From: Closterium sp. NIES-65
Lineage: Eukaryota; Streptophyta; Zygnematophyceae; Desmidiales; Closteriaceae
Length of the DNA stretch: 64,000 bases
Assembly: GCA_948144175.1 (NCBI GenBank)
Contig: CANXME010000495.1
Span: 31,528 to 95,527 of the forward strand
Direction: 5' to 3'
The translations under genes were made by a program, and so were the position numbers. Positions within the stretch are counted from its first letter, which is position 1. Every line of letters starts with the position of its first letter. This document shows, piece after piece, positions 934 through 49,564 of this stretch. The notes beneath the pieces were generated by a model that saw only the letters and a list, made by a program, of their open reading frames with translations, had not been told where the DNA came from and made no database searches.

Positions 934-955
934 AGGCTTGAGGTAGCACATTCGG

Positions 956-12375: not shown

Positions 12376-15300
12376 TGCGGCAGTGTGGTGTACCCGGAGC
12401 TCGTGCAATGCGTGGAGATCGTGATACGGCTGCCGGAGTCGTGGTCTGCCCTTGCAATCAACCTCAACTCCCAACAACCCCAATAGATCGTGGATTACAT
12501 TCGCGCGCGCATCCTAGAGGAGGACTTGCGGCGGCGGAGTGTGGAGCGCTCGGAGGAGGGGGCTGGCTATGGAGTTGGAGGTGGAAAAAGTGGCTTCAAG
12601 AAGAAGTGGAAGGGCAAGAACAAGGACAACCCTAAGGAGGATGGCGGCGGGGGTCAAGGGGAGGTGTGCTTCTACTGCAAGAAGCGCGGACATCGTTGGC
12701 GGAAATGCTACCAACGACCCAAGGATTGGACCCCGCCTTCATCAAGCAACCAGCATGGTGGCACTAGGCGTGGGGTAGTCATGGGAGCTAGTGGAGAGAA
12801 GAAGGATGAGGTGAAAGGCGGCAAATCTGAGGAGCGGAAGGCCGGGTTCTTATTCTTCGTGAACGAAGGCGCAACCGACCATGCTATGGCTGCCAAGGTT
12901 CTCCTACACCCCCTCACCCATTGGGTGATTGACTCCGGGAGCTCTTGGCACATGACTCCTCGTGCGGACCTACTTGATGAGATTCAGCCCGCACCCATCT
13001 CTACAGTCACATCCGCGATGGGCGCCAAGGCCAAGGTCATGGGCATGGGATGCGCCAAGTTCATGGGAGCAGATGGAGAGCTCGTGGGGCTGAAGAACGT
13101 GCTGTGGGTGCCGGACTTGTGCGCGAACCTGATTTCTACCGGCCGGTTGGGAGATGCGGGTGTGAACACCAAGACGATTGGCTCGGAGCGCTATCGTGCC
13201 TACAACGATGAGCGCCTCATTTGGGACCTGTAGTGGAAGGGAGATGTCCACAAGCGGATGTGGCAGATCTCAGTCCTCCCTTAGCGGAAATCGGGCAAGG
13301 CGGCAGCAGCGGCATCTGTGGAGGAGAGCGTCACCGAGGAGGAGCAGCAAGGTGTGCAAGGAGAGGAGCTGATTGGAGGAAGCGCGGCGGTGAAGGCGTC
13401 GGCTACCTCGGGCCAAGCGGATTGGGAGACTTGGCATCGGCGTCTCGCACACGTGGCTGTTTCTACATTGGAGGTGATGCACAAGGAGAAGTGCGTGCAT
13501 GGGCTGCAAGTGCAAGGAGATGGCACTCACTATGGCAGCTGCGAGGCGTGCACGCAAAACAAGTTTGCGTGGTTCCCGTTTCCACGTGCAGAGGGATCAG
13601 CCGAGGCACCATTGGAGGTGGTGCACATGGACCCGGTGGGTCCTATGAGGACTGAGGGGACTGGGGGAGTGCTGTACTTCCTCACCATGGTGGACGAATG
13701 GAGCCGTTTCACGTGGGCACGTCCCTTGTCCAAGAAGAGCGATGCTGCAACGGCAATCAAGGAGGATTGGTTGCTGATGGTGGAGCGGCAAGCGATGCGG
13801 CTGGTGAAGGTGCTAAGGAGCGACCGAGGTGGAGAGTTCCTTGGAGCGGAATTCACCAAGTTCCTCAAGAGAAATGGCATCCGACATCAGTTGTCCTGCC
13901 CAAGAACACCACAGCAGAACGGCATTGCTGAGCGTGCCAACCGGACCATTGGCGAGGCAGCTAAGACCTTGTTGGGGGCTGCTGGGATGCCCTACAAGTT
14001 CTGGCCTGATGGCGTTCGCCATGTCATCACGGTCAAGAACAGGGTCTTGACGCATGTTGGCGACAAGCATTGGGTGCCGTACGAGCGTTGGCTTGGGAAG
14101 AAGCCATCTATTGACATGCTGTGTGTGTGGGGCTGCATGGGGCTTGTGATGGTGCCTAAGGAGCAGAGGCACAAGCTGGAAGTTGCTGCTGTGTGGGCTA
14201 TCCATCTTGGGATGGCTCCTGACTCGAAGGGGTGGCTGATGTGGGACCCCACGAGCAAGAAGTCGCTGGTCAGCCGTGACGTCAAGTTTGTGGAGGATGT
14301 CATGTACAAGGACTGGCAGCAGCAGCAGCAGGTGCAGATTGGCTTGCGTCTGCAAGAGATTGGGCGGTTTGCAGTGGAGGAGGTTCAGCTGCACCTTGAG
14401 GATCTCCCTGGGTCAGAGCTGACCAGTGACCACAGTGGCGGTGGTGAGAAGCAAGGCGCTGGTCCTGCTGCGGAGGAGGGGTTGGAGGATGAGTCGGCAC
14501 GTGTGGACTCACCATCTCAGCCCGAGCCTACTGCAAACGCCAAGGTCACCAAGAGGAGTGTGCAGAGAGGAGCTTCACCACATGGGCAGCAGATTGCAAC
14601 CCGCGAGAAAAGAGTGGCAGCAGCACCCTCAAGGCTGAAGTATAGCCGTTTGGGAGGACCCAAGCAAGGTGCCATGGCGGTTCAGGCGGATGAGGGAGAG
14701 GATGAGGAGATGGCGTTCTGTTTCTTCACACTTTTGCCTGGAGAACCAGCCACGGTGGAGGAGGCACTGAGTGGACCCCAAAAGGAGGAGTGGAAGGCTG
14801 CCATGGATGCGGAGTTCAACAGTCTCATTGAGAATGGGACTTAGGAGCTTGTTGAGTTACCCGAGGGGCGATGGCCGATCAGCAGCAAGTGGGTCTTCAA
14901 GGTGAAGAGTGGAGCTGATGGTGCGTTGGAGCGGTTCAAGAGCCGTTTGGTCGCCAAGGGGTTTCAGCAGAAGGAGAAGGTCGACTTTGGGGAGATCTTT
15001 GCTCCCGTTGCTAAGCCATTGACACTGAGAACTTTGATGGCTGGCGCAGCTGTGAAGGGATGGCACGTGAAGCAGATGGATATCACCACTGCGTTCCTAA
15101 ATGGAGTGCTGCTGGAGGATATCTACATGGCGCAGCCCGACGGCTATGAGGATGGGAGCAGCCGGGTGTGCAAGCTTAAGAAGGCCATCTATGGCCTTAA
15201 GCAAGCACGCAGGTGTTGGTACGAGAAGCTGGAGGAGGTGTTGCTGGATGGAGGCTTCAAGACGTCCCAGGCGGATCACAGCTTGTTTCTGCTTGGAGAA

Positions 15301-16320
15301 GGGGAGCAGTTGCTTTTGCTGCTGGTGTATGTCGATGACATACTGCTGTTCTCACCCTCCATGGAGCAGATTGAGAGGACACAGAAGCTGTTGATGGACA
15401 ACTTCAAGTGCAAGATGCTGGGGGATGTCCACTACTACTTGGGGCTGCAGATTGAGAGGGATGTTGAGAGGAGGTGGCTGAAGGTGCATCAGTCACACTA
15501 CATCTCTAGTGTCATGGAGCGGTATGGTGTGACTGGGGGTCGCACTGTAATGACACCATTCCCTGCAGGCTTCAAATTGAAGAAGGCAGCTGAGGAGGAT
15601 GATGTGCTTGAGGATGAGCAGCAGAATGAGTACCAGTCACTCATTGGGAGTGTGATGTATGCAGCTGTGCATACGCGACCTGATGCTTCATTCGGAGTGG
15701 GGCAGCTGGCCAGAGTTGTGCAATGGCCCACTGTGGAGCAGTTGGAGGTGGCAAAGTGCTTGGTGCGCTACCTTGGATTAACGGCATCTGCTGGTGTTCA
15801 GTTTTCAGCTGGCGGCCAGGTGAAATAGATTGGAGCAGATGGGGTCACGCCTGGTACCTTGAAGCTGTCGTGCTTCACCGACGCCACATGGGCCTCAGAG
15901 GATGAGGATCAGTCATCGGTTGGCGGCTTTGTGTGCATGGTCGGAGGTGGACCAGTGAGCTGGAGGTCCAAGAAGCAGAGTGAGATGTCCGGAGAGGCAG
16001 AGTACATGGCGATGTACCATGCCATCAAGGAGATCGTGCTCTTGAGGAAGCTGCTGGAGGACATGGGAGCTGAACAGGAGGGACCTACACCACTTTTCTC
16101 TGACAGCGAGGCTGCTATTGGCATGGCCAATAATCCTATCCTGAATGGGCTGAACAAGCACATGAAGATTAAGTGGCACTGGGTGAGGCAGATGGTGGAG
16201 GGAGCTGTTGAGCTTCACCTTGTGAAGGCTAGCAAGCAGGCGGCAGATTTTCTCACCAAGAGACTTCCCGAGAGCGCACATTGGAAGTGTGCTAAGATGT
16301 GTGGCATGGCATTGCACTAG
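12376..16320 (+). pseudogene. Copia-B gag-pol, one frame with five TAG stops (beta)
   Basis: One reading frame of about 1,314 codons with no indels. The gag tail starts CGSVVYPELVQCVEIV. A canonical knuckle C-x2-C-x4-H-x4-C lies at 12667-12708, the intact protease site IDSGSSWHM at about 12928, and the integrase zinc region (H-x4-H...C-x2-C) at about 13434-13550. The catalytic motifs are MDPVGP, SDRGGEF and QQNGIAERAN, with Glu present. RT has FKSRLVAKGF, DITTAFLNG and YVDDILLF. RNase H has DATWAS, EAEYMAM and DSEAAIG. In-frame TAG codons lie at 12484, 13231, 13282, 14842 and 15826. The TAG at 14842 replaces Trp in the usual NGTWELVELP; the others fit CAG (Gln) or TGG. Reverting only these would leave every domain whole, so inactivation is by point changes. 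Confidence 0.85.
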
Positions 16321-16420
16321 TGAGGGCAGCAGCGTCATGAATGCATGTGTGATTGTGTGCATGAGACTATGCATGTGTGTGGGTGTGTGTGCATGCAGTC
16401 CGTTAGTCTGAGGGGGAGTT

Positions 16421-16819
16421 TGTTGGATGCACGTCATCCTGAGTGCATGTCATCCTAACATCCTGCCGAGTGCTCGTGCTATTTGTGCTTGCATGATTTG
16501 CATGAGCGTATGTCATTGTGCATGGCTGTTGGATATTATCATCTCCATGTTTTTCTCCAAGTCTAAATGCTTGATCATACAGGAGAAATCTAGAGCTTTC
16601 CAACGACACCAAGATCGCCTTATTCCGACCAAGATCGCCCATGTTACAAGATTTCCAAGATTTGGATTTCTTATTACCTTTTGGGGTTATATCTAATTTG
16701 GGTGATTACTTGGGACATGAATATAAAGGGATCTTTGGTTGGGTGGTTAGGGAAGGCAACTTTGACTTTTGGATTGGGGTGGCTAGAAGTTTCTAGCATG
16801 GGTTGCAAATGTTGCAACA
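16421..16819 (+). repeat. Copia-B presumptive 3' LTR (beta)
   Basis: Starts TGTTGGATGC straight after the purine tract GAGGGGGAG (16410-16418) plus two bases. A TATAAAGG at about 16722 is a possible promoter. The right end is not fixed because no 5' LTR is available. I chose 16819 because GTTGCAACA there complements the TGTTG start; an end further right, for example ACTAGTCA at 17020, is also possible. Bases 16820-17162 contain nothing I recognise. Confidence 0.5.
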
Positions 16820-17162
16820 CCTAGGCAAAATCCAACTAGATTGGAATTGCATGTGACACCTCAAGGACCTCATGATGAGGGTTGCATCCTTGCTGCTAGG
16901 AAGGTTCCTACCATCCTTCCCTAGCTCTTGGAGAACCCCTTCTCTCTCATGGTTCTCTTGGAGTCCCCAACTCCAACTTTCTATGCCCTAATGCTTGTAC
17001 TTCCTCTACCATACTAGTCATGCAGCTGCTGGACGTTTTTACTTGGTTCTCAATCTAGAGACCATCTTAACGACTGATTCAACTTGGAGATGGTAGCTAA
17101 GCCTGAGGCGCAACTTCCTACCAAGCGGATTTGCGTTTAGTTGAGTAATGAGTTCGTCGTAA

Positions 17163-17785
17163 GCTCTCAAAGTGACGGATCATGAACAACACGTTCCTCA
17201 CGCCGCTGATGAGTACCGTTGGAGGTACCTTGTAGAGGACCCGTCAAAGGGGAAACGTTACCTGCTTCACTTCCCGTCACTCACCTGCGATTTCTGCAAT
17301 GGTCAGCACATGTCGCGGTACCATGATCATTACATCACCTCGAGGCAGGAGAACTTCACCAACTGGAACGTGACGGTCAAAAAGGTTCATGAGATGAATG
17401 GTATAAGAAGAAAGGCTCCCCGTCCACTACCTTAGCAGTCTTTACCGCTTTCCTCTTTGCTTCCTACCCCATACTGACGGTTGTTTCCCCACTTCTCCCC
17501 GCAGCTGCATCCCTAAAAGCCTCAGCCCTCATGAAACATATCGTAAAAGACCCCGCGGTTGTACTCACCTCCACAGGAGGTGTGTGGGAGGAGTGGGTGT
17601 GTGTGCAAACGGTGTGTAAGAAGGCACAAGGGAGTCGCTTCGAGCAGGCAGCGGCTCACATCGCATCTGCCGGGCACAAGGGAGGGCTGAAGGAGGTCAG
17701 TGCTGCAACACGTGCCAGCACGCACTCTCAGAATTTTGCTGCTTTCAAAAAGGAGTTCATCGTCAAACCGGCAAGAAGTGATTAG
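17163..17785 (+). CDS. Two-exon fragment of an unrecognised Cys/His-rich gene (beta)
   Basis: Two open segments join in frame if 17401-17504 is removed. That 104-bp stretch starts GTATAAG and ends in a pyrimidine-rich tract plus CTCCCCGCAG, a good GT-AG plant-type intron. The upstream segment (open from 17163 after a TAA) contains CDFCNGQHMSRYHDHY, a C-x2-C...H-x3/4-H cluster. The downstream segment (17505-17785, TAG stop) contains WVCVQTVCKK...AAHIASAGH, a second C...C...H...H cluster reminiscent of BED-type fingers of plant hAT transposases and their derivatives. There is no upstream ATG in frame, so the 5' exons are missing; AAG at 17170-17172 could be an acceptor. I do not recognise the family. 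It could be a host gene or a DNA-transposon fragment. The intron shows it was not made by reverse transcription of a spliced mRNA. Confidence 0.45.
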
Positions 17786-17964
17786 GAGCTCAGTCATAAA
17801 TACATAGATGGGATCAGATGATGCAGCAAGGTGGATCATGGGTGCAGGATGTATAGTCGGTGCCATGTTCTCTTTCGCTGTAGAAGGATGTATCGTCGCA
17901 GTGAAGCTTAACTGCCCATGGATGCTGTGGGGCTCAACGAAGTGGATTAATGGATAAAAACAAG

Positions 17965-20900
17965 TTCACCTTTCTCGAGCTCAACATCAACAGGCTCGAC
18001 AGTAGCAGATAGCAAGAGAGTTGCAGGAAGTGGATAAGGAAGGCAGCGAACATTGTAGTCCTTACAGACGCCTGAGATCCAGCAGACCATAACTTCTAGA
18101 CGCAAGTCAGGTCGGAGGCCCAGGCAGTGATGGGTACATCGCAGAGAGCTAGCGGAGTAGCCGTTTTGGGTTTCCTGCAAGGGATGCGGTTTAAGAAGGT
18201 GGTCAAACACAAGTCAGGCCGCCTTGTGAGCCTAATAGCGAAGTGGCGTGATCTAAGTTGCAGAATAGTTGCTGTGTACCTACCGGCGCAGGCCCCTGCA
18301 AGGAGGGTGTTCTTCCGAGATGTCCTGACACCCTTCGTGCAAAGCCTACGCGCGACACCACACACGGTCTTCCTAGGTGACCTGAATATCGTCGCTGATC
18401 CGGAGCTGGATAAGTCGTCGAAGCTGGGGACCCCGGTGGAAAACCTGAGACTCTTGCAAATTTGCTTGACGTGGGATTTGCAGGACGCTTTCCATTATCT
18501 ATTCTTTCCATTACCTTTTTCTCCAGATCTGCAAGGACAAGTACGCAAATCGACAGGATTTTAGTATCTCACTCATTGCTCAACTGCGTGATAGAGGCAA
18601 AGCATAAGATGATGCCCTACAGCCTCACTGACCATTGGTTTGCGGTATCAGTCACACTTAAATCGGCATCGGCAGATGACCACGGCCCTGGTCTCTAGAG
18701 GCTTGAGGTAGCACATTCGGGTGGCGAAGGGACCCAAAAAATTCATATCTGCGGTATTGGCGACGCAAATAGACGAGCCGGCCCAGAGCCTGGAGAGGCT
18801 ACTGGCGAATCTGTGGGCAAGCATGAGAGTGCACGTAGCGGAGGAGAGGAAAAGGGTGAAGGTGACCATGGCGCATCTGGAGCAGAAAGTGGAGGCCCTC
18901 AGGTGGAGGGTGATGGCAGATCCATCGGCACAAGATATGTACGAGGAGCTGACAAAGAGCGAAGCGGCACTCAAACTTTACCTGGATGTGAACAAGGAGC
19001 GGCTCTAGGTCATGGCAGGGATGCTGGCCGGACTGGCAGGTGAGACATCATCGGGCTTCCTATTGGGCCTGTTCAAGTCGAAGACAGAGATCAGTGAACT
19101 ATTTTGTAAAGGCGCGTGTATGAAAGGGGCAAAAGAGTTGCTGCAGGCGGCTTCCGAACACTTCCGTGAGGCCTACGCTGGCTCACCAGCAGGGAATGTC
19201 AAGGAGCCATGGCCGATTGATGAGAGGCGGCGATTGCAAGAGGCTGACCGGACGATGCTTGGGAGAGAGTGGTCGGAGCAGGAGGTAAAGGAAGCGCTCA
19301 AGGGGCTCCCAGCGGGAAAAGCTCCAGGCCAGGACGGGTTGCGAAGGAGTTCTTCGAGCGCAACTGGGAACTCCTTAGACCAGCGGTGATGAAGGAGGTC
19401 AAAGCGTTCGAGAAGACGGCACGGCTCTCCAAAACCTTCACAACGGCGGTTAGAATCCTACTACACAAAAAGGGAGACAGGGACAACTTGAGTAACTACA
19501 AACCAATTATTTTACTGAGCTTCTTCCACAAGCTACTAGCGAAAGTAATGGCAAACTGGATCAAATTAGTCTTACTGAGGGTGATATTGGAGAACCAGTT
19601 TGGATTCCTCTCGGGAAGAAGTCTGGCGGACGCGGTCTCACTTGTAGTAAATACAATAGATGCAACGATGGAGGAGGATGAGGACTAGTTGTTGCTGCTA
19701 GTCGACTTCCAGAAAGCATACGACTCAGTGTCTCGGGAGCACCTGTTCAAGATGTTAGAGAACATGGGTTTCCCAACGGGGTATTCGGCATGGGTGAAAG
19801 GTCTTCATGATGGTGCGGCTACCAAGTTGCTGCTGAACGGCTGGGTGGGGGAGAAGGTGGAGATGGAAAAAGGGGTTTGCCAGGGGTGCCCACTCGCCCC
19901 GTACCTCTTCCTTTGCGCCATTGAGCCACTCTACCAGGAAATCGAAAGGAGGAAACTGGGAGTCAAAAAAAGGGGCATAAAAGGGGAGCTAGCTTACATT
20001 GGCTACGCTGATGACACGACCCTTGTCCTAAAAGGGAAGGAGCAAGTGGTATCAGCGAAGAAGCTGTTGGATGACTTCGCGGGAATATCGCGGCTAAGGG
20101 TGAACCACGAGTAAACACCACTGATGCCACTGGGGAAGAACAGGAGGAGGTTGCAGCCGATAGCCTAACCTTTCACCTGGGCAGACAAGGACAGGGCGGA
20201 GTGGCTGTTAGGTATTTGGATAACGTACGGCGGCTCACCGAGACCAGTGTGGGACAAGGCGTTTGAGAGAGTAAGCGCGGTGCTGAGCTGCTAGGAAACG
20301 AAGCACCTCAAGACATCCGCGAGAGTCACCATCATCAATAGCTATGCGATGCCGATCTTACTATTCCAGGCCCATATTTATGCCCCGCCGCATGAAATCT
20401 GGACAAAGGTGAAGTGGCTCTGCCACAACTTCATCTCTGGGGGCAAAGCACTGCTGGACAGGCATTTCGTCCTCTGGAGTTACGACCTGTCGTGCCGGGG
20501 AAGGAGAGACGGCAAACTAGGAGTGATAGACTTGAAGCACCGAATCGATAGCACTGTGATCCAAAACCTGGGCAAGGCCCTGGTGGAGCATGAACCTTTA
20601 AGAATCTGGCTATGGGAGAGAGCGGCTGGTTTCCCACTTGGTCTGGCGACAATCTACGCCCACCCCTCGATCTTGAACCACTAGTTGGGAAGCGGGACAA
20701 GATAGAAAGCAGCAGTAAAAGCCCTATGGGACTCAAAAATCTTAATCATTGGTGACCTTGCACACAGATGGGACGCGAAAGAGGAGCAGCTATTGCTCAA
20801 TCGGAAAATCTTCTTCAGAGGCAGATCACCTTTCGTAATCAGGCGGGCTTGCACTGCTTGATGGGAATACGCCTGGGGGACTTGGTGGAAAAGAGCAGCG

Positions 20901-22024
20901 ATGATAGCAAAAGCCTCAAGAGCGACGCCACCCTGGAACAGGAACTTGGGGGGGTAGACCAGAGAAAGTGGGCCTGGAAGGCGAGGGAATCAGTGCCACA
21001 GAGTTGGAGGGACCTGGTACTCACCAGCTGCCAGCGGAGGAGGTTTTCAGGGAGACGTGTTTGATTCGCACACCGTCATACTGACCAAGGGAGTTTTTCT
21101 ACTACACGCTAGAATACGCGAACAACGGAGTGCTGTATGGGAAGTGGGCGACGGTGGATAAGAAGGGGCACATATCCGCGGTGGAGTATGCCAGCGTGGT
21201 ATCAGTTGACCACTTACACACCACTCCAATGGCAGTCATAGAAGGGAGGATGCGAGGGCCGCTGGGTGACCGGAGATCACGGCTGGTCTACTCACCGATC
21301 TGCAACAAAGGCAAGCGAGCCGAACTAAGGCAGCTGCGGAATGCAATGAGGCCCCGAACCGCCCAACCCAAGCAACAGCTGTAGTGGGAAGAAGTGAGGG
21401 GGAGGAAGATAGACTGGGGGAAAGCCATCAAGATCCGGGACTCACTAGCAACCCCAGCAAGGGGGCGGGAAGTGGTGGAGAGAGTGCACAACAACCTACA
21501 GGTGGAGGAAAGACTTCCGTTCCTGGGCGCAAGGGTGCGCTGTGTTCACTGCGGGGGGGAGGAGTCACAACACCACTGCCTCTTCAGCTGCCCCATGATC
21601 CAACCAGTGGTCGGGGTGATGAAGAGAGTAGTACAATGTGTGAACCCGGGCAGACATGGAGTGCCTCAGCGATATGCTGTTCCAAGAAAACAGCACGACG
21701 ACGGGTTTTCCGGAGGCTGCCTTCATCTCGATCACGGCGCACCAAGTTTGATTGGAGAGGTGCAATGCGGTTTTCAGGGATAGCCGATTCCAGCCAAAAA
21801 GGGCGCTGCGATACATGGCAGTGATTTTTACAAGGGACGTGAAGATTTACAACCGGGCTCGGAAAAGGGTGGCTGGAAAGGGGGCTACGGAACGGTCAGG
21901 CGGCTGGAGTCACTTGGCTGCTGATGAGGCGGAAGTCATGCACAAACTGTACCAATGTGAAGCCTCGATGACGTGGAAGGCGGATTTCAAGGCAATCTGG
22001 GAAGATGGAGGGGTGGCCTTCTAG
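17965..22024 (+). pseudogene. LINE ORF2-like pseudogene, copy beta
   Basis: Endonuclease remnant 17965-18698, linker and RT 18721-20945, zinc-binding tail to 22024. RT motif C YADD lies at about 20005. Domain content and lesions are as described for 200-4259. Confidence 0.7.
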
Positions 22025-35729: not shown

Positions 35730-38700
35730 TTCACCTTTCTCGAGCTCAACATCAACAGGCTCGACAGTAGCAGATAGCAAGAGAGTTGCAGGAAGTGGAT
35801 AAGGAAGGCAGCGAACATTGTAGTCCTTACAGACGCCTGAGATCCAGCAGACCATAACTTCTAGACGCAAGTCAGGTCGGAGGCCCAGGCAGTGATGGGT
35901 ACATCGCAGAGAGCTAGCGGAGTAGCCGTTTTGGGTTTCCTGCAAGGGATGCGGTTTAAGAAGGTGGTCAAACACAAGTCAGGCCGCCTTGTGAGCCTAA
36001 TAGCGAAGTGGCGTGATCTAAGTTGCAGAATAGTTGCTGTGTACCTACCGGCGCAGGCCCCTGCAAGGAGGGTGTTCTTCCGAGATGTCCTGACACCCTT
36101 CGTGCAAAGCCTACGCGCGACACCACACACGGTCTTCCTAGGTGACCTGAATATCGTCGCTGATCCGGAGCTGGATAAGTCGTCGAAGCTGGGGACCCCG
36201 GTGGAAAACCTGAGACTCTTGCAAATTTGCTTGACGTGGGATTTGCAGGACGCTTTCCATTATCTATTCTTTCCATTACCTTTTTCTCCAGATCTGCAAG
36301 GACAAGTACGCAAATCGACAGGATTTTAGTATCTCACTCATTGCTCAACTGCGTGATAGAGGCAAAGCATAAGATGATGCCCTACAGCCTCACTGACCAT
36401 TGGTTTGCGGTATCAGTCACACTTAAATCGGCATCGGCAGATGACCACGGCCCTGGTCTCTAGAGGCTTGAGGTAGCACATTCGGGTGGCGAAGGGACCC
36501 AAAAAATTCATATCTGCGGTATTGGCGACGCAAATAGACGAGCCGGCCCAGAGCCTGGAGAGGCTACTGGCGAATCTGTGGGCAAGCATGAGAGTGCACG
36601 TAGCGGAGGAGAGGAAAAGGGTGAAGGTGACCATGGCGCATCTGGAGCAGAAAGTGGAGGCCCTCAGGTGGAGGGTGATGGCAGATCCATCGGCACAAGA
36701 TACGTACGAGGAGCTGACAAAGAGCGAAGCGGCACTCAAACTTTACCTGGATGTGAACAAGGAGCGGCTCTAGGTCATGGCAGGGATGCTGGCCGGACTG
36801 GCAGGTGAGACATCATCGGGCTTCCTATTGGGCCTGTTCAAGTCGAAGACAGAGATCAGTGAACTATTTTGTAAAGGCGCGTGTATGAAAGGGGCAAAAG
36901 AGTTGCTGCAGGCGGCTTCCGAACACTTCCGTGAGGCCTACGCTGGCTCACCAGCAGGGAATGTCAAGGAGCCATGGCCGATTGATGAGAGGCGGCGATT
37001 GCAAGAGGCTGACCGGACGATGCTTGGGAGAGAGTGGTCGGAGCAGGAGGTAAAGGAAGCGCTCAAGGGGCTCCCAGCGGGAAAAGCTCCAGGCCAGGAC
37101 GGGTTGCGAAGGAGTTCTTCGAGCGCAACTGGGAACTCCTTAGACCAGCGGTGATGAAGGAGGTCAAAGCGTTCGAGAAGACGGCACGGCTCTCCAAAAC
37201 CTTCACAACGGCGGTTAGAATCCTACTACACAAAAAGGGAGACAGGGACAACTTGAGTAACTACAAACCAATTATTTTACTGAGCTTCTTCCACAAGCTA
37301 CTAGCGAAAGTAATGGCAAACTGGATCAAATTAGTCTTACTGAGGGTGATATTGGAGAACCAGTTTGGATTCCTCTCGGGAAGAAGTCTGGCGGACGCGG
37401 TCTCACTTGTAGTAAATACAATAGATGCAACGATGGAGGAGGATGAGGACTAGTTGTTGCTGCTAGTCGACTTCCAGAAAGCATACGACTCAGTGTCTCG
37501 GGAGCACCTGTTCAAGATGTTAGAGAACATGGGTTTCCCAACGGGGTATTCGGCATGGGTGAAAGGTCTTCATGATGGTGCGGCTACCAAGTTGCTGCTG
37601 AACGGCTGGGTGGGGGAGAAGGTGGAGATGGAAAAAGGGGTTTGCCAGGGGTGCCCACTCGCCCCGTACCTCTTCCTTTGCGCCGTTGAGCCACTCTACC
37701 AGGAAATCGAAAGGAGGAAACTGGGAGTCAAAAAAAGGGGCATAAAAGGGGAGCTAGCTTACATTGGCTACGCTGATGACACGACCCTTGTCCTAAAAGG
37801 GAAGGAGCAAGTGGTATCAGCGAAGAAGCTGTTGGATGACTTCGCGGGAATATCGCGGCTAAGGGTGAACCACGAGTAAACACCACTGATGCCACTGGGG
37901 AAGAACAGGAGGAGGTTGCAGCCGATAGCCTAACCTTTCACCTGGGCAGACAAGGACAGGGCGGAGTGGCTGTTAGGTATTTGGATAACGTACGGCGGCT
38001 CACCGAGACCAGTGTGGGACAAGGCGTTTGAGAGAGTAAGCGCGGTGCTGAGCTGCTAGGAAACGAAGCACCTCAAGACATCCGCGAGAGTCACCATCAT
38101 CAATAGCTATGCGATGCCGATCTTACTATTCCAGGCCCAGATTTATGCCCCGCCGCATGAAATCTGGACAAAGGTGAAGTGGCTCTGCCACAACTTCATC
38201 TCTGGGGGCAAAGCACTGCTGGACAGGCATTTCGTCCTCTGGAGTTACGACCTGTCGTGCCGGGGAAGGAGAGACGGCAAACTAGGAGTGATAGACTTGA
38301 AGCACCGAATCGATAGCACTGTGATCCAAAACCTGGGCAAGGCCCTGGTGGAGCATGAACCTTTAAGAATCTGGCTATGGGAGAGAGCGGCTGGTTTCCC
38401 ACTTGGTCTGGCGACAATCTACGCCCACCCCTCGATCTTGAACCACTAGTTGGGAAGCGGGACAAGATAGAAAGCAGCAGTAAAAGCCCTATGGGACTCA
38501 AAAATCTTAATCATTGGTGACCTTGCACACAGATGGGACGCGAAAGAGGAGCAGCTATTGCTCAATCGGAAAATCTTCTTCAGAGGCAGATCACCTTTCG
38601 TAATCAGGCGGGCTTGCACTGCTTGATGGGAATACGCCTGGGGGACTTGGTGGAAAAGAGCAGCGATGATAGCAAAAGCCTCAAGAGCGACGCCACCCTG

Positions 38701-39790
38701 GAACAGGAACTTGGGGGGGTAGACCAGAGAAAGTGGGCCTGGAAGGCGAGGGAATCAGTGCCACAGAGTTGGAGGGACCTGGTACTCACCAGCTGCCAGC
38801 GGAGGAGGTTTTCAGGGAGACGTGTTTGATTCGCACACCGTCATACTGACCAAGGGAGTTTTTCTACTACACGCTAGAATACGCGAACAACGGAGTGCTG
38901 TATGGGAAGTGGGCGACGGTGGATAAGAAGGGGCACATATTCCGCGGTGGAGTATGCCAGCGTGGTATCAGTTGACCACTTACACACCACTCCAATGGCA
39001 GTCATAGAAGGGAGGATGCGAGGGCCGCTGGGTGACCGGAGATCACGGCTGGTCTACTCACCGATCTGCAACAAAGGCAAGCGAGCCGAACTAAGGCAGC
39101 TGCGGAATGCAATGAGGCCCCGAACCGCCCAACCCAAGCAACAGCTGTAGTGGGAAGAAGTGAGGGGGAGGAAGATAGACTGAGGGAAAGCCATCAAGAT
39201 CCGGGACTCACTAGCAACCCCAGCAAGGGGGCGGGAAGTGGTGGAGAGAGTGCACAACAACCTACAGGTGGAGGAAAGACTTCCGTTCCTGGGCGCAAGG
39301 GTGCGCTGTGTTCACTGCGGGGGGGAGGAGTCACAACACCACTGCCTCTTCAGCTGCCCCATGATCCAACCAGTGGTCGGGGTGATGAAGAGAGTAGTAC
39401 AATGTGTGAACCCGGGCAGACATGGAGTGCCTCAGCGATATGCTGTTCCAAGAAAACAGCACGACGACGGGTTTTCCGGAGGCTGCCTTCATCTCGATCA
39501 CGGCGCACCAAGTTTGATTGGAGAGGTGCAATGCGGTTTTCAGGGATAGCCGATTCCAGCCAAAAAGGGCGCTGCGATACATGGCAGTGATTTTTACAAG
39601 GGACGTGAAGATTTACAACCGGGCTCGGAAAAGGGTGGCTGGAAAGGGGGCTACGGAACGGTCAGGCGGCTGGAGTCACTTGGCTGCTGATGAGGCGGAA
39701 GTCATGCACAAACTGTACCAATGTGAAGCCTCGATGACGTGGAAGGCGGATTTCAAGGCAATCTGGGAAGATGGAGGGGTGGCCTTCTAG
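35730..39790 (+). pseudogene. LINE ORF2-like pseudogene, copy gamma
   Basis: Endonuclease remnant 35730-36463, linker and RT 36486-38710, zinc-binding tail to 39790. It shares the old stops of the other copies and adds the two gamma-specific lesions at 38941 and 39183. Confidence 0.7.
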
Positions 39791-40005
39791 CCTCTGTAGA
39801 GAGTAAGAGGGGGGAAATGTTACCTGTAACATTTAGCCCTTCTAGCAACAGTTATGACTGCGGATGTATGCATGCGTGTAGTATACTTATATCCACACTA
39901 AAAAAAGAGGCGACGAAATCGTCTAAGGGTTGCAAAGCGATTTGCATAAACAAATTATATTGTACAGTTTCTAATACTGAGATTTTGATTTACACGATTA
40001 CCTAC

Positions 40006-40051
40006 CTTGTAGTGCACAACATTGATAACTTGTAGTGCACAACATTGATAA
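40006..40051 (+). repeat. 23-bp tandem duplication (gamma)
   Basis: Exact two-copy version of the duplication seen at 4475-4520. Confidence 0.8.
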
Positions 40052-40439
40052 AAAGTATCACAACATCAAACTTAAAAAAAAATTGTTGAGGTTTGCAAAA
40101 GGGTCCCAAATAGGTTTCGTACTTGCCACCTTCCTCATTCGAAGAATTTCTCAAACAACTGTGCTATCACTAGTGTTAACATCGAAAAACCGAATTTAAT
40201 AAACGTTTTCGTTTGCGACGAATTACTCCTTCATCTAGGGTTAGCTTGTTCCTTTCCTCCTCCCGCATTTCTTCGCGCTGAGCTAGGTTCTTCACAGCCG
40301 CCAGCTAGTCACCCTCCACCTACCACTCTAAGGTGAGAAGGAACATGAACTATAAACTAGAACTAAGTTTTGCGAGACAAACCTGTCGTAGCCTCTTTAT
40401 TTAACCGTTCAAAGGATTGCAATGAACTTAGGTTTCATG

Positions 40440-40570
40440 TGTCAGAACATTATAGCTTACTTATTTGTGTAGGCTATAGTGGGGTATCCCATAAGGGGTA
40501 CAACCCAATTAGGGTTTCCTATTTGTACTCACTTCGTTCTTAGTCATTCATTCACGTTCCTTTATTCACA
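40440..40570 (+). repeat. Copia-A 5' LTR (gamma)
   Basis: Identical to the alpha 5' LTR, preceded by target duplication TCATG. Confidence 0.95.
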
Positions 40571-40585
40571 TGGAATCAGAGCAGG
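40571..40585 (+). promoter_or_regulatory. Copia-A primer-binding site (gamma)
   Basis: Same sequence and position relative to the LTR as at 5040. Confidence 0.85.
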
Positions 40586-41641
40586 TCCCATCCTAGGGAC
40601 TGTTCTTTAGGGCCCACCGAAGCGCGCCCGAGGCGCGCGCCTTTTTTTTTAGCGACCCTCCGAGTCGCCCTTTTCCTTCGCGGCCCTGCCGCCCTACTTC
40701 GCGGCCCGACCGCCGCCCTACTCGCGGCCCAGCCGCCGCCCTACCTTAGCGGCCCACCCGCCGCCCTTGCTAGCGGCCCCGCCGTCCCGTAGCGGCCCCG
40801 CCACTCCGTCGCGGCCCCGCCACCCAGTCGCGGCCCCGCTACCTCTTCGCGCGGCCCCGCCACTTCGTCGCGGCCTCGCCACCCCTTTGAGCGGCCCCGC
40901 CACTTCGTCGCGGCCCCGCCACTCCGTCGCGGCCCCGCCACTCCGTCGCGGCCCCGCCACCCTTCAAGCGGCCCCGCCACTCCGTCGCGACCCCGCCACC
41001 CAGTCGCGGCCCCGCTACCTCTTCGCGCGGCCCCGCCACCTCGTCGCGGCCCCGCCACCCCTTTGAGCGGCCCCGCCACTCTGTCGCGGCCCGCCCGCCG
41101 CCCCTTATCTCGCGGCCCCGCCGCACCAGCGCCCACGGCCCCGCCGCCCCAGCGCTCCCGGTCCCGCCGCCCCTGATACGCGGCCCCGCCGCCCCAGCGC
41201 TCCAAGCCCTGCCGCCCCTGATCTCGCGGCCCCGCCGCCTCAGCGCTCCAGGCCCTGCCACCCCTGATCTCGCGGCCCCGCCGCCCCAGCGCTCCCGGCC
41301 CCGCCGCCCCTGATACGCGGCCCAGCCGCCCCAGCGCTCACGGCCCCGCCGTCCCTTGCTCTCGCGCCGCCCAACTGCAGCAGCCGAGCTGCCCAACTGC
41401 AGCAGCCGAGCAGCAGTGCAGCCGAGCCGCCCTTGCACCCGAGCCGCCCGGCAGCCGAGCCGCCCCGCCCGAGCCGCCCTACCGCCGAGCCGCCTGGGAG
41501 CCGAGCCGCCCGGGAGCCGAGTCGCTGAGTAGCCGAGCCGCCTTTCTACCGAGCCGCCCGACCTGCCCTGCCCGGTAAGCACTGTACCGCTATCACTGCG
41601 TGCCCTTCCCCTACTACTTGCACTGCTTCACTGTCGTCGTC

Positions 41642-44600
41642 ATGGCTACCCCTAGTGTCCTTGCGTTTGACGCTGAGGGTCGAGCCATAGACTTCGAGGT
41701 CTGGCTCGACGACTTGCAGCTGTTTTTACAGTGCGATAGGGCGGACGGTCTGTCTCTCTTTGACCTCACCTCTGGCGCCGTCCCTGCCCCTGCTGCTGAT
41801 GCTGACGCCACTGTTCGCTCACAGTGGGCCACGCGCGATGCTGCTGCACGTCTTGCTGTGCGTCGCCACTTGCCTACCGCTGAGCGCGCGCACTTTAGCC
41901 AGTACAAGAGTGCCCAGACCTTGTACAACGCTATAGTTGCGCGCTACTCCTCCCCTGCCACTACTGCACTGAGCCACCTCATGCTCCCCTTCCTCTTCCC
42001 TGACCTTGCCGCCTTTCCCACTGTCGCTGATCTCATCACGCACCTCCGCACTAGTGACACTCGCTACCGCGCTGCGCTTCCTATTGAGTTCTGCGCCAAG
42101 AACCCCCCCCCCATGTACATCACTCTCTACTTCTTAGTCACTCGCCTCCCTGACTCCCTTCGTGTAGTCCGGGACCACTTCCTCGCAGTCTGTCCCACCA
42201 CCCTCACAGTCGACAGCCTAGAGAAGGCCCTCCTTGCGGCAGAGAAGAGCATAGTTGATGTAGGAGCCTCTCGAGGCGACCCCCGCGCCCCCATCTTTGA
42301 GGGGTGTTCTCCTTCCCCTCTCCTGCCCTCTGTCGCCTCTGCCGCTGCGGCCGACCTCGTTGGTCTTGACTCGGTCGGTGCGGCGTCTGCCCCTAGCGGG
42401 AGACGCCGCTCTGGCAAGGGCAAGGGGGGCAAGGGAGCGGGTGGGGCCAGTGGGGGCGGTGGAGGTGGAGGTGGAGGCGGCGGAGGGAGTGGGGGTGGCG
42501 GTGGAGGTGGTAGCGGGGGTGGGGGTGCTAGTGGCGGCAGTAGAGGCGGGGGTGGCGGCGGCGGTGGCGGTGGTAGCGGAGGTGGCGGAGGTGGCGGCGG
42601 TGGAGGCGGAGGTGGGGGCGGTGGAGGTGGCGGCGGGGGTGGCGGCGGTGGAGGTAGTCGGAGTGGAGCTTCGCAGCGGAGAGGCGCTGGGGGAGGTCAG
42701 CGCCAGCAGCAGCAGCACCAGCAGCGTTCTCGCGACGTCCCCACCCCTCAGCAGCTCCGTGAGTGGTACACGCAGCGCCAGCGCGGTGGGGGTTTTGGTC
42801 CCTACACCTACGTTCTCCGCACTGGCGAGCGCGCTGGAGAGCAGTGTGGGGGCACCCACACCGCCCAGCGCTGCTTTGGCCGCCTGACGAACGCTTGGCG
42901 CCAGCAGTTCCCGGAGGCCGCGGAGATCCCCCGCTGGGGAGAGCTGTCAAGGGCAGGTGTCGCTGTTTTTGACCTTGACTTTGATGCTATCCTTGCTGCC
43001 ATGTATGCTGTGACCGTTAGTGATGATGGTGACTGTTACGGGTGTTTCCCGCCCGACCCGGGCATTGGTACTGCTGCTCCAGGTGCCGGTGAGGCTTCTG
43101 CTCTAGGTGCCAGTGCGTCTGTGCTCTCAGGTGCTGGTGAGGCTGCTCTCTCAGGTACTAGTGCGTCTGCGCTCTCAGGTACTGCGTCGGCTTCGGCCTC
43201 CCACACCTTCACTCTTGACTCTAGAGCGTCTCGCTCTTTCTTTCGGGACCACACCACACTCACACCGCTTAGTCGGCCGGTTGCGGTTTCCCTGGCTGAC
43301 CCCTCTGGGGGTCCTGTCCTGTCTCGCTTCTCCACAGTCCTCCCGTGTCCGGCGGCTCCCTCTGGCACCCTGTCTGGTCTCTACCTCCCCTCGTTCTCTA
43401 CGAACTTGGTGAGTGGTGCTGACCTACAAGATGCGGGAGTCCACCAGTTCACTCCTGCTCGTCAGCGAGTGACGCACTGCACAGAGGCTAGCACGGGTCG
43501 TCACCTGGCTACGTTCACACGTCAGCCAGGGTCGAGCCTGTACACACTGACCACTGCTTCTCCTCCAGCTGCTGAGTCTGGTCGAGTCCCTTCGTCTGGT
43601 CAGGTGTTTGCTGCGGCGTCCAGGTCTGGTCCTGAGTCTGCCCCCTGTTTGTGTCGCCGTCTGTCTCACGAGACCCTCCTCTGGCACCACCGCCTTGGCC
43701 ACCCCTCTCTGCTTCGGCTCAGAGGCATGGCCTCTCGTCTTCTTGTGTCTGGTCTTCCCCGGTCCCTCCCTCCCCTTCCTCAGGGCCTTGGCCCTGCCTG
43801 TGTCCCCTGTGTCGAGGGGCGCCAGCTTGCTGCCCCTCAGTCCTCCCAGTTTCCTCCGACAGAGGCTCCGTTGCAGACGCTTCACATGGACGTGTGGGGT
43901 CCAGCCCGCGTCCGTGGACAGGGTCACGAGCGCTACTTCCTGCTGGTGGTTCATGACTACTCGCGTTACACCACAGTCTTCCCCTTGCGCACCAAGGGTG
44001 AGGTCACTGAGGTGTTGATCGACTGGATCCGTGCAGCTCGTCTCCAGCTCAGGCGGAGCTTCGGCTCGGACTTTCCTGTTTTGCGTCTGCACTCGGACAG
44101 AGGCGGAGAGTTCTCCTCTGGCCTTCTTCGTGCCTACTGTCGTGCGCGAGGCATCCGCCAGACCTTCACGCTTCCGGACTCCCCGCAGCAAAATGGGATT
44201 GCAAAGCGCCGCATTGGCATGGTCATGGACGTCGCTCGTACGTCTATGATGCATGCGGCTGCCCCCCATTTTCTGTGGCCGTTTGCGGTCAGGTACGCGG
44301 CGCATCAGCTCAACCTTCACCCCAGGGTCTCCAGGCCGGAGACCTCCCAAGCCTTGCTATGGACGGGGAAGGTTGGCGATGCGTCAGCGTTCCGGGTCTG
44401 GGGATCTCGGGCGTTTGTCCGCGACTTGTCTGCGGACAAGCTGTCCCCTCGCGCTGCTCCCTGCGTCTTCCTGGGGTTCCCCCCCGACGCCCCTGGGTGG
44501 CAGTTCTACCACCCCACCTCTCGACGTGTTCTGTCCTCCCAGGACGTCACGTTCGACGAGTCGGTACCTTACTACCGCCTCTTCCCCTACCGCACTCCGT

Positions 44601-45082
44601 CCCTCCCCCCGCCCCCGCTCTTCTTGGTCCCAGGTCCCCCCCCGGTAGACCCCCTCCCCCCTCAGGGTCCTGCCCCTTCAGGTGTGTCCCAGGTAGACGC
44701 GGTCGAGCCTGTCGAGGTCACTGGTGACTCTGGTGCTGCTGCGGGAGCTGAGCCTAGGGGTGCTGGGACTGGAGGTGCTACGCTTGGGGGTGCTGAGCCT
44801 GGGGGTGCGGAGTCTGGGGGTGCTGAGCCTGGGGGTGCGGAGTCTGGAGGTGCTGAGCCTGGGGGTGCTGAGCCTGGGGGTGCTGAGCGTGGGGGTACTG
44901 AGTGTGGGGGTGCTGAGCCTGGGGGTGCTGAGACTGGGGGTGCTCCGCCTGGAGGTGCTTCGTCTCGCCGACAGCCACTCTCCCCGCAGGAGCTGCGTGA
45001 GTGGTTTGCCCGTCGCTGGAGGCGTGCTGCTGGTGCTGGAGGTTCTTCGGCTGCAGAGGGTGCTGCTGCCGAGCGTCCTTGA
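41642..45082 (+). CDS. Copia-A Gag-protease-integrase reading frame (gamma)
   Basis: Same frame as 6111-9551, with private Thr-to-Ile (42084, Gag) and Ile-to-Val (43910, next to the first integrase Asp) changes. The inactivating substitutions are shared with the other copies. Confidence 0.8.
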   Translation: MATPSVLAFDAEGRAIDFEVWLDDLQLFLQCDRADGLSLFDLTSGAVPAPAADADATVRSQWATRDAAARLAVRRHLPTAERAHFSQYKSAQTLYNAIVARYSSPATTALSHLMLPFLFPDLAAFPTVADLITHLRTSDTRYRAALPIEFCAKNPPPMYITLYFLVTRLPDSLRVVRDHFLAVCPTTLTVDSLEKALLAAEKSIVDVGASRGDPRAPIFEGCSPSPLLPSVASAAAADLVGLDSVGAASAPSGRRRSGKGKGGKGAGGASGGGGGGGGGGGGSGGGGGGGSGGGGASGGSRGGGGGGGGGGSGGGGGGGGGGGGGGGGGGGGGGGGGGSRSGASQRRGAGGGQRQQQQHQQRSRDVPTPQQLREWYTQRQRGGGFGPYTYVLRTGERAGEQCGGTHTAQRCFGRLTNAWRQQFPEAAEIPRWGELSRAGVAVFDLDFDAILAAMYAVTVSDDGDCYGCFPPDPGIGTAAPGAGEASALGASASVLSGAGEAALSGTSASALSGTASASASHTFTLDSRASRSFFRDHTTLTPLSRPVAVSLADPSGGPVLSRFSTVLPCPAAPSGTLSGLYLPSFSTNLVSGADLQDAGVHQFTPARQRVTHCTEASTGRHLATFTRQPGSSLYTLTTASPPAAESGRVPSSGQVFAAASRSGPESAPCLCRRLSHETLLWHHRLGHPSLLRLRGMASRLLVSGLPRSLPPLPQGLGPACVPCVEGRQLAAPQSSQFPPTEAPLQTLHMDVWGPARVRGQGHERYFLLVVHDYSRYTTVFPLRTKGEVTEVLIDWIRAARLQLRRSFGSDFPVLRLHSDRGGEFSSGLLRAYCRARGIRQTFTLPDSPQQNGIAKRRIGMVMDVARTSMMHAAAPHFLWPFAVRYAAHQLNLHPRVSRPETSQALLWTGKVGDASAFRVWGSRAFVRDLSADKLSPRAAPCVFLGFPPDAPGWQFYHPTSRRVLSSQDVTFDESVPYYRLFPYRTPSLPPPPLFLVPGPPPVDPLPPQGPAPSGVSQVDAVEPVEVTGDSGAAAGAEPRGAGTGGATLGGAEPGGAESGGAEPGGAESGGAEPGGAEPGGAERGGTECGGAEPGGAETGGAPPGGASSRRQPLSPQELREWFARRWRRAAGAGGSSAAEGAAAERP

Positions 45083-47563
45083 GGTGGTCGTGCTGTGGGT
45101 ACTGGAGCTGCTGGGTCTGAGGGTTCTCCTGGAGCTGGTGCTGCTGAGGGTGTTGGCGCTGAGACTGCCGCTAGCGGTCCGACTGACAGTGCTCCTGGTG
45201 GTGCTGCTGGAGGTTCTGGAGCTGCTGGAGGTGTTGCTGGAGCGGGTACTCCTACTGGGGGTACTGATGTTGTCCCTGCTGTTTCTGGCGTCGCCGCGCG
45301 GCCCCGACCGTACTTCGTTCCGCTCCTGCAGCAGGTTCTTGGTCTTACACCTTCTCCTGGTCCTCCTCCTCCTCCCTTAGAGGGTCCACAGCCTGTCTCG
45401 TCACAGTCACAGCTACAGCCTGCCTCCCCTTTGCCTGCTCCTTCTCCCTACGCTGGTCCGACTGGAGGTCCTACTGAGCGTTGTGAGCCTGCGTCTCGTC
45501 CTGCGTCGCCTGTTCGTACTGCGCGCACTAGTGGTCGTGGTTCGCGTCAGCGTCCTCCTCCTGTCCCTGGCACGCACCGGATGTCTCTGCGTCCATCCAC
45601 TGCTCCTCTGCGTGCCCCTTTGCCTTCTCCTCCTGCTTCCTCTCTTCCTGCTCTTGCCGACCCGGAGTCGGACTCTCTTCGTGCTGCCAGTCCCACTGTC
45701 ACGCGTCTCCTTGCTACTGCTGTCACTGACCCTTCTTTCGAGTCTTCTGCTGCGTCTGCCCTTGTCACTGAGCTCGTCGACTTTGCTGCGCGCTGTCGTC
45801 TAGACTACGCTGCTAGTCTTGTCGCTGAGTCTGAGTCTGCCTGTCCTCCGTCCGTCGGGGGTGAGTGTGCCCTTGGCACGGACGTCCTTGAGTTGAGGAC
45901 AGGCAGGAGGAGTTCCAGTGTCTGGCCGCCGCTTCACCTCATCTCGCGTCTGTACTACTTGCCCCTGAGGGAGACCCGGATGCACTTGACATCCCGACTC
46001 CGCGCTCTTACGCGGAGGTGATAGAGGGTCCCTACTCCTCTCAGTGGCAGGCAGCTATGCATGCAGAGATGGCTTCCTGGAAGTCCACAGGCACCTACGT
46101 TGACGCTGTTCCCCCTCCTGGGGCGAACATCGTCAGTGGCATGTGGATTTTTAGGGTGAAGCGGCCGCCGGGTTCTCCGCCTGTCTTCAAGGCGCGTTAC
46201 GTGGCTCGTGGCTTCAGTCAGCGGCAGGGAGTTGACTACTTTCAGGCTTTCTCCCCCACCCCGAAGATGACCACTCTTCGGGTACTGCTGCACGTTGCTG
46301 CTCACCGTGACTACGAGCTGCACTCTCTCGACTTCAGCACAGCTTTCTTGCAGGGCAGCCTGCACGAGGAGATCTGGCCCACCTGGCTTCACTGGGTCTT
46401 TCCCTCCTGGTACCCAGTGGAGTCTCCGGCGTCCAGTCTACGGTCTCCGCCAGGCGCCACGCGAGTGGCACGACACACTGAGGACTACGCTGGCGGCACT
46501 TAGGTTTGCTCCTTCTACTGCCAACCCGTCGCTGTTTCTGCGCACCGACACCTCTCTGCCGCCGTTCTACATCCTCGTGCACGTCGACGACTTGGTCTTT
46601 GCCACAGCTGACACCGCTTGACTCGCCTACGTGAAGTCCGAGCTGAAGAAGAGACACACGTGCACTGACCTGGGTGAACTGCGCAGCTACCTTGGCTTGC
46701 AAATCACCCGGGACAGAGCACGCCGCACCATTACCCTGACTCAGTCACACATGGTGCAGCAGGTCCTTCAGCGCTTCGGCTTCACGTACTCCTCGCCTCA
46801 GGCCACTCCTCTGCCTACTCGCCACTCGCTCTCAGCTCTGCCTTCGGATGAGTCCGTAGAGTCGAGTGGCCCGTATCCAGAGCTTGTTGGCTGCCTCATG
46901 TACCTGATGACCTGCACACGACCTGACCTTGCATACCCTCTTAGCATTCTTGCACGCTATGTTGCTCCTGGGAGACACCGACCAGAGCACATAGCTGCAG
47001 CGAAGAGGGTGTTGCGCTACTTGTGCAGTACGTCGGGCATGGGGCTAGTGCTTGGAGGGCGCAGTCTAGTGGTCCTCACTGGGCACGCGGACGCTTCTTG
47101 GGCTGACGACCAGGCTACGCAGCGGTCGTCACAGGGTTACACCTTCAGCCTTGGTTCCGGCTCTGTTTCGTGGCGGGCTACCCGCTCGTCTTCTATTCTC
47201 GGCTCCAGTTGTGAGGCTGAGATCTACGCCGGGGCTATGGCTGCACAGGAGTTACGTTGGCTCACCTACCTGCTGACCGACCTTGGAGAGCCGCCTCGTT
47301 CTCCTCCAGTCCTGTACGTAGACAACAAGGCCATGCTGGCCTTGTGTCGAGAGCAGCGACTGGAGCACAGGACAAAGCACATTGCTCTCCGCTACTTTCT
47401 TGCTCGTGAGCTACAGCAGCGTGGACAGTTGCGACTTGCGTACGTGGCATATGAGGCCAACACTGCTGATGTCTTCACCAAGGCACTTGCGCCTTGTGAT
47501 CATCAGCGTTGCTGCACGCAAATGGGTCTTGTGCCTGTCTTGCCTCACTTGCTCACTTCTTGA
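45083..47563 (+). pseudogene. Copia-A reverse transcriptase-RNase H region (broken, gamma)
   Basis: Same lesions as 9552-12032; the RT segment reads ANPSLF, as in alpha. Confidence 0.85.
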
Positions 47564-47766
47564 CCTTGCTTGTACCTTTACCTATATATACTCTTGCTCT
47601 TGCTTGCTTGGCTCTTGTATATCTCTATATATTATCTTGCATGTGAACTGGCCTTGTGGCCCTTGAACTTGTGCTCGGAATGTGTGGTGACTTTGTGATC
47701 CACCCTGAGCTTTGCTTTACTTTGCTTGACTGGTCTTGTGACCCCTTGTTCTCCCCCACTTTGCCT

Positions 47767-47775
47767 ATGGGGGTG
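47767..47775 (+). promoter_or_regulatory. Copia-A polypurine tract (gamma)
   Basis: ATGGGGGTG abutting the 3' LTR, as at 12236. Confidence 0.75.
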
Positions 47776-47906
47776 TGTCAGAACATTATAGCCTACTTAT
47801 TTGTGTAGGCTATAGTGGGGTATCCCATAGGGGGTACAACCCAATTAGGGTTTCCTATTTGTACTCACTTCGTTCTTAGTCATTCATTCACGTTCCTTTA
47901 TTCACA
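47776..47906 (+). repeat. Copia-A 3' LTR, right end of array (gamma)
   Basis: Identical to 12245-12375, but followed by TCATG and unique DNA rather than by Copia-B. Confidence 0.95.
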
Positions 47907-47911
47907 TCATG
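47907..47911. repeat. Right target-site duplication of Copia-A (TCATG)
   Basis: Matches TCATG at 40435-40439 immediately left of the element. The left copy is also at 4904-4908 and 22669-22673, where no right-hand partner exists. Confidence 0.9.
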
Positions 47912-49559: not shown

Positions 49560-49564
49560 ATTCC

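What the first reader, a model, noticed from the sequence alone, without database searches (positions are those of the whole stretch)
12376..47911. 17.77-kb tandem array whose junction falls exactly on a retrotransposon LTR end
Units begin and end on the final CA of the Copia-A 3' LTR. Inside the array the LTR is followed by TGCGG and truncated Copia-B gag. At the array end the same LTR is followed by TCATG, which matches the left flank of the element. So the right end is the true insertion site and the internal junctions are recombinant. Unequal crossing-over between this LTR and a related LTR inserted in Copia-B gag explains every base. The three Copia-A copies are almost identical, while the LTRs of one copy differ at 2 of 131 sites, so the duplication is much younger than the insertion.
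Basis: partly seen in the sequence, partly recalled or inferred. Interest (0 to 1): 0.85.

Follow-up and report, generated by a model that had tools for sequence, protein, structure and literature searches.

The report
Tandem duplication ending beside retrotransposon LTR
A 17.77-kilobase block of old mobile elements was copied head to tail, twice on one assembled version of the region and three times on the other; the joint lies one base beyond a retrotransposon's end, but it does not look like recombination between two such elements as first thought, so this is a largely ordinary duplication.

Summary
The array is real: units of 17,765-17,766 bp fill window 1-47907, with the native Copia-A insertion (target repeat TCATG) at the right end. 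The window lies in a 95.5-kb contig, C495. Upstream of its first unit, Copia-B gag runs on uninterrupted with no LTR; contig C1052 shows the same. The internal joint is LTR+T|GCGGCAG: no shared base, one base beyond the LTR. The LTR's last 36 bases occur exactly 10 times in the 874-Mb assembly, all inside the array. Among 35 relatives the longest exact match to the LTR end is 25 bp. C495 carries three units and C1052 two. Nine of 13 informative sites group the first units of both contigs, so the two-copy state is older.

Best reading: a non-homologous tandem duplication, then unit-length homologous exchange. Why the break fell beside the LTR end (chance about 0.0003-0.001) is unexplained. The third unit rests on assembly alone. 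An ordinary kind, with a breakpoint that invites the wrong mechanism.

The parts
1..12376 (+). Unit a, right part (whole unit is C495:26139-43903; its left 5,389 bp lie outside the window)
12377..30141 (+). Unit b, 17,765 bp (C495:43904-61668)
30142..47907 (+). Unit c, 17,766 bp (C495:61669-79434), last unit
12376..12377 (.). Internal joint 1: ...TTCACAT|GCGGCAG..., no shared base, 1 bp past the LTR end
30141..30142 (.). Internal joint 2, same bases
47907..47911 (+). TCATG, right target-site repeat of Copia-A: native right end of the array
   Evidence: 402-bp right flank full length once on C495 and once on C1052
4909..12375 (+). Copia-A copy 1 (LTRs 4909-5039, 12245-12375; left target repeat TCATG 4904-4908)
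22674..30140 (+). Copia-A copy 2 (LTRs 22674-22804, 30010-30140); integrase and RVT_2 domains, frame broken into several ORFs
40440..47906 (+). Copia-A copy 3 at the native site (LTRs 40440-40570, 47776-47906; TCATG on both sides)
12377..17191 (+). Copia-B cut inside gag, with pol and 3' LTR (16421-17191); the uncut copy is C495:24602-30953, CGTTC on both sides, LTRs 97.0% alike
30142..34956 (+). Copia-B cut inside gag, second cut copy
19248..20111 (+). Two reverse-transcriptase pieces (RVT_1; the second above Pfam's cut-off, the first below) of a degenerate LINE-like element between Copia-B and Copia-A, shown for unit b
22058..22673 (+). 616-bp low-copy stretch left of Copia-A; full length at five places in the assembly (3 on C495, 2 on C1052), which counts the units

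Best explanation
A non-homologous tandem duplication. Copia-B inserted, and Copia-A inserted at a site 10.3 kb downstream of the later break in Copia-B gag. Long after Copia-A's insertion, an end broken one base outside its 3' LTR was joined, without shared bases, to a position inside Copia-B gag on a sister or homologous chromatid, making a head-to-tail duplication of 17.77 kb. Shown: the uninterrupted left edge, the native right end, the base-exact joint, the order of Copia-A insertion and duplication, and two versus three units on two contigs. Inferred: that the joint came from end joining or template switching between chromatids, that the two contigs are haplotypes, and that the step between two and three units was unequal homologous exchange over the 17.77-kb units.
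For: Both edges are uninterrupted parental sequence: the left edge runs through Copia-B gag on C495 and C1052, as in 10 of 10 other Copia-B copies printed (L023-L032, 96-97%). The right edge is the native insertion with TCATG on both sides. Against both parents the joint has zero shared bases, and no added base if the T is taken from TCATG. The joint LTR equals the native 3' LTR at 131 of 131 positions in both C495 joints; the C1052 joint LTR has one inserted base. No other exact copy of the LTR's last 36 bases exists in the assembly (10 hits, all in the array). The duplication is younger than the insertion: both private LTR changes are in all five units, and the chance of at least 2 changes in 131 at a unit divergence of 15 in 17,766 is 0.006. 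Nine of 13 informative sites group the first units of both contigs; the other four support four different groupings. Units on one contig differ from each other mainly by substitutions, which a copied assembly path would not give.
Against: A random break falls within one base of an outer end of Copia-A with a chance of about 0.0003, or about 0.001 if both breaks and four LTR ends are allowed (rough, and made after seeing the case). That coincidence is unexplained. Neither 100-base break region folds unusually as single-stranded DNA (z 1.23 and -0.85). End joining leaves no unique mark here. No second individual and no reads were available. Only one of the nine first-unit sites could be compared with relatives: its first-unit base was in 0 of 10 (A 7, T 3), so that change may be on the first-unit side.
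Confidence: 0.74

Rival explanations
1. LTR-LTR unequal crossing-over after all, between homologues: one homologue had a Copia-A-type LTR in Copia-B gag, the other did not. The left edge then comes from the homologue without it, which would explain the empty left edge.
For: It explains why the joint lies beside the LTR end. Copia-A makes a 5-bp target repeat, and an LTR insertion there would leave LTR followed by about five target bases.
Against: The target repeat predicted from the empty site is GGCGG; the joint has TGCGG, so one base must be added or changed. Against the 35 relatives read, an exchange would be confined to the last 25 bp (2 of 35), 24 bp (1) or 5-6 bp (32). No exact copy of the last 36 bp exists outside the array. 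The joint LTR has no donor base and carries the private C at position 18 and lacks the base after position 107 that 35 of 35 relatives have. Both left edges are empty.
Confidence: 0.08
2. Capture of a Copia-A cDNA: the LTR end of a linear cDNA was joined to a break in Copia-B gag and its body recombined with the resident Copia-A 17.8 kb away, giving the duplication without an LTR at the left edge.
For: It explains the LTR end and the empty left edge. The extra T could be a copy of the last base of the primer tRNA (recalled, no call).
Against: The nearest relatives found are 95-98% identical over the matched 3' end (35 places), yet units differ by at most 21 substitutions over 17.7 kb. The cDNA would have to come from this very element after it gained its change at LTR position 18, and its frame is broken.
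Confidence: 0.07
3. The duplication arose while Copia-A was inserting: the single-stranded 5-base gap beside the right LTR was not filled, broke in replication, and the LTR end with one base of the target repeat was joined to Copia-B gag.
For: It predicts LTR plus the first target base at the joint and an empty left edge, as seen.
Against: Each LTR carries one change private to this element and all five units share both, so the insertion was already old, unless the units were homogenised later. Nine sites from column 77 to 16133 still separate first from later units, which limits homogenisation.
Confidence: 0.05
4. Assembly error: two copies are real and the third unit on C495, or the whole array, is false.
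For: C495 is a small contig whose two ends are full of indels against C1052 (one-base events 46 of 60 in the left flank, 107 of 130 in the right), as in thinly covered contig ends. No reads were available.
Against: The inner left flank is clean: 13 substitutions and two neighbouring 15-bp gaps between C495:10300 and 26138. The three units each have private substitutions. The joint also occurs in the 7.475-Mb contig C1052.
Confidence: 0.06

Closest known systems
[quoted passage not shown]
   Same: Head-to-tail units in direct orientation; a first duplication then offers a long substrate for further copy-number change
   Different: There homologous sequences lie at both boundaries; here the left boundary has none
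Mouse Abp block duplication through L1 elements (PMC3669608, abstract and passages seen)
   Same: Recent direct duplication with a retroelement at the joint
   Different: There the joint element is a hybrid with a switch between two parents; here the joint LTR is this element's own as far as can be seen
Long tandem arrays of Cassandra retroelements in plants (PMC7215508, passages seen)
   Same: Tandem array containing LTR elements; later copy-number change by unequal exchange proposed
   Different: There units are LTR plus internal domain; here a 17.77-kb unit of several different elements with a non-homologous joint
Ordinary non-homologous tandem duplications (structural variants with blunt joints; recalled general knowledge)
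   Same: Both edges are intact parental sequence; joint without homology; can expand or shrink later by unit-length exchange
   Different: Breakpoint one base from an LTR end; unit holds only mobile elements as far as tested

Membership tests
LTR-LTR unequal crossing-over (non-allelic homologous recombination) | Related LTR in direct orientation at both edges of the duplicated segment | tested here: not met
   Left edge is uninterrupted Copia-B gag on both contigs
LTR-LTR unequal crossing-over (non-allelic homologous recombination) | Joint LTR is a hybrid of two different LTRs | tested here: not met
   131 of 131 identical to the native 3' LTR in both C495 joints, private base included; one inserted base in the C1052 joint LTR; no exact donor for the last 36 bases in the assembly
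LTR-LTR unequal crossing-over (non-allelic homologous recombination) | Bases right of the joint LTR equal the target repeat of the second LTR's insertion site | tested here: not met
   Empty site reads GGCGG, joint reads TGCGG: 4 of 5 bases
LTR-LTR unequal crossing-over (non-allelic homologous recombination) | Reciprocal deletion product or LTR-bearing allele in the population | not testable with these tools
   One assembly only
Non-homologous tandem duplication | No homology shared by the two parents at the joint | tested here: met
   CACAT|CATG and CAAG|GCGG give CACAT|GCGG
Non-homologous tandem duplication | Both outer edges are unbroken original sequence | tested here: met
   Copia-B whole with CGTTC on both sides; native Copia-A right end
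Non-homologous tandem duplication | A single-copy ancestral chromosome exists | not testable with these tools
   Both contigs have at least two units
Ty1/copia LTR retrotransposon (Copia-A, Copia-B) | LTRs TG...CA, 5-bp target repeat, integrase upstream of RVT_2 | tested here: met

The most novel reading that the evidence does not exclude
The boundary between an LTR and its target site is itself a place of breakage, so that old LTR elements can seed non-homologous tandem duplications without any second LTR. Duplications filed as LTR-LTR recombination because their joint touches an LTR end would then partly be of this kind.
Probability: 0.18. Interest if true: 0.5.

Novelty: new member of a known kind. 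Interest (0 to 1): 0.27.

Why it matters
It is a clear case in which a joint at an LTR end suggests recombination between LTRs and the far edge of the array shows otherwise; calling the mechanism from the joint alone would mislead. The locus also shows a copy-number difference between two contigs (two against three) that could be typed by PCR. Beyond that it is an ordinary duplication of mobile-element DNA; no host gene was found among the ORFs tested (21 stretches of the unit).

Tried and rejected
Rejected: LTR-LTR crossing-over in its simple form (no LTR at the left edge); the variant with an LTR on only one homologue is kept as a weak rival. Duplication at the moment of insertion: weakened by the two shared LTR changes. 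cDNA capture: weakened by the distance of the nearest relatives found. Short homology at the joint: none. DNA folding at either break: nothing unusual.

Led nowhere: scan of viral contigs with Copia-B RT (none) and with the joint pattern (none); scan of bacterial and archaeal genomes with Copia-B integrase (50 pattern matches, none confirmed); plasmids with unit DNA (no match). tRNA scan of the window: none. Paper searches: searches gave 0 papers; some searches gave lists, and I saw passages of PMC7215508, PMC3757047, PMC3669608 and PMC3536649. The Drosophila Bar case was searched and is not used. I make no claim that this mechanism is absent from print.

Not done: target-repeat precision of other Copia-A copies (search for their 5' ends, not answered); search for solo LTRs with the whole LTR (not completed); whole-genome count of the left-edge sequence (not completed).
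Full report
What is there. The window is C495:31528-95527 of an assembly of 874,075,685 bases in 2,400 contigs; C495 is 95,527 bp long. Self-comparison shows a head-to-tail repeat of 17,765-17,766 bp covering window 1-47907. Each unit holds a Copia-B element cut inside gag, a degenerate LINE-like stretch with RVT_1 pieces, 616 bp of low-copy sequence, and a Copia-A element with 131-bp LTRs. Of 21 unit stretches given to Pfam (10, 10, 1), all matches were retroelement domains; that is not an exhaustive search for host genes.

The observation. The unit begins one base later than stated: the T after the LTR's CA is not Copia-B sequence.

The decisive test. Reading C495 to its left end and the matching stretch of C1052 shows instead gag running straight through the break...CTTCACGAAGCTACAAGGCGGCAGTGTGG..., on both contigs. 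The region is continuous in 10 of 10 other Copia-B copies printed (L023-L032), and all 40 places scored, of 466 candidates, match the 301-base query end to end (2 of the 40 are this locus). Copia-B at the left edge is whole, with CGTTC on both sides and LTRs 97.0% identical.

The joint. Parents: CACAT|CATGTC on the right and CTACAAG|GCGGCAG on the left; product: CACAT|GCGGCAG. No base is shared. If the T is not counted as target repeat, it is a one-base insertion exactly at the LTR end. A pattern across the joint is found three times in the assembly, twice on C495 and once on C1052.

Could a hidden LTR still have done it? If the second LTR was present on only one homologue, the left edge could be empty after an exchange between homologues. 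I looked for traces of such a donor. The joint LTRs on C495 equal the native 3' LTR at all 131 positions; the C1052 joint LTR has one inserted base. Of 40 places scored (1,712 candidates), 5 are the array and 35 are relatives; all 35 were read. At position 18 all 35 have T where this element's 3' LTR has C; at position 55, 34 have G and 1 a gap where its 5' LTR has A; after position 107 all 35 have a base (A 22, T 13) that this element lacks. The exact match to the outer LTR end is 25 bp in 2, 24 bp in 1 and 5-6 bp in 32. These 35 were picked by a query that includes 76 bp of internal sequence, so solo LTRs could be missed; the exact last 36 bases of the LTR, sought by pattern in the whole assembly, occur 10 times, six on C495 and four on C1052, all in the array. 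The empty site also predicts GGCGG, not TGCGG. So a homologous exchange would need a donor absent from the assembly, or a crossover in the last 35 bases, and one changed base. I hold this at 0.08.

Order of events. Copia-B LTRs differ at 21 mismatches in 770 columns and Copia-A LTRs at 2 of 131; with so few changes in the short Copia-A LTR (95% interval 0.19-5.4%) the order of the two insertions is not settled. First and later units differ by 14-21 substitutions in about 17.7 kb: Ca-Cb 17, Ca-Cc 15, Ca-Ab 14, Aa-Cb 21, Aa-Cc 17, Aa-Ab 16 (C and A stand for C495 and C1052, a, b, c for unit order). The two Copia-A LTR changes are one in each LTR and shared by all five units. So Copia-A's insertion is older than the duplication; the probability of two or more LTR changes at a unit divergence of 15 in 17,766 is 0.006.

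Copy number. The 616-bp low-copy stretch is found full length five times, three on C495 and two on C1052; the 402-bp right flank is found full length once on each. Of 13 informative substitution sites, nine group the first unit of C495 with the first unit of C1052, and four support four other groupings. Two units are therefore older than the split of the two contigs, and C495 gained a unit or C1052 lost one. The last unit of C1052 shares one site with the middle C495 unit (column 7544) and one with the last (9042), as a fused unit would, but single sites do not decide this. One of the nine sites (column 77) could be compared with 10 Copia-B relatives: A in 7, T in 3, the first-unit base C in none. 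Against my reading of haplotypes: C495 differs from C1052 by dense one-base indels towards both its ends, a mark of thin coverage; its inner left flank has 13 substitutions in 15.8 kb. Four pairs among the 35 relatives have identical 15-base right flanks on different contigs, which fits an assembly that keeps both haplotypes in places, but I had no reads.

What is left open. The break fell one base from an LTR end. Folding of the break regions shows nothing. I see no mechanism better supported than coincidence; breakage at the LTR boundary is the boldest reading that remains (0.18).

Known kinds. Papers seen as passages only: PMC3536649 (Ty-bounded tandem amplification in yeast), PMC3669608 (L1 hybrid at the mouse Abp duplication), PMC7215508 (Cassandra arrays), PMC3757047 (LTR-LTR recombination; its reference list names Roeder 1982 on unequal crossing-over between yeast elements, title only). 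This locus looks like an ordinary non-homologous tandem duplication and fails the three defining features of LTR-LTR recombination that could be tested.

Noticed in passing
window 48308-49559: A short element of about 1.25 kb on the minus strand with 130-bp terminal repeats 97.7% alike, ATTCC on both sides, terminal repeats 73-75% like the Copia-A LTR over 88 bases: a short, probably non-autonomous relative.
   Followed up: partly
window 55047-62419: A diverged Copia-A-type element (about 82% over 2.7 kb) whose outer flanks as I place them, TTTCA and GCTGC, do not match; sequence similar to another copia body follows it.
   Followed up: partly
C1052, first unit, unit columns 2702-2740: A 39-bp deletion found only in the first unit of C1052, useful as a marker.
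   Followed up: no
window 28743, 28756, 28757: Three substitutions within 15 bases private to the middle unit; the third agrees with the diverged relative at 61038, the other two do not, so conversion from another copy is possible but unproven.
   Followed up: partly
window 12377-18937 against 30142-36702: The middle and last units are identical over their first 6.56 kb and hold all 11 of their differences in the rest (chance 0.006-0.016), which hints at recent exchange.
   Followed up: partly
C495:1-10000 and C495:80500-95527 (the right one is window 48973-64000): Both ends of the contig differ from C1052 by many one-base indels, so fine detail of window 48973-64000, broken frames above all, may be sequencing error.
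   Followed up: partly
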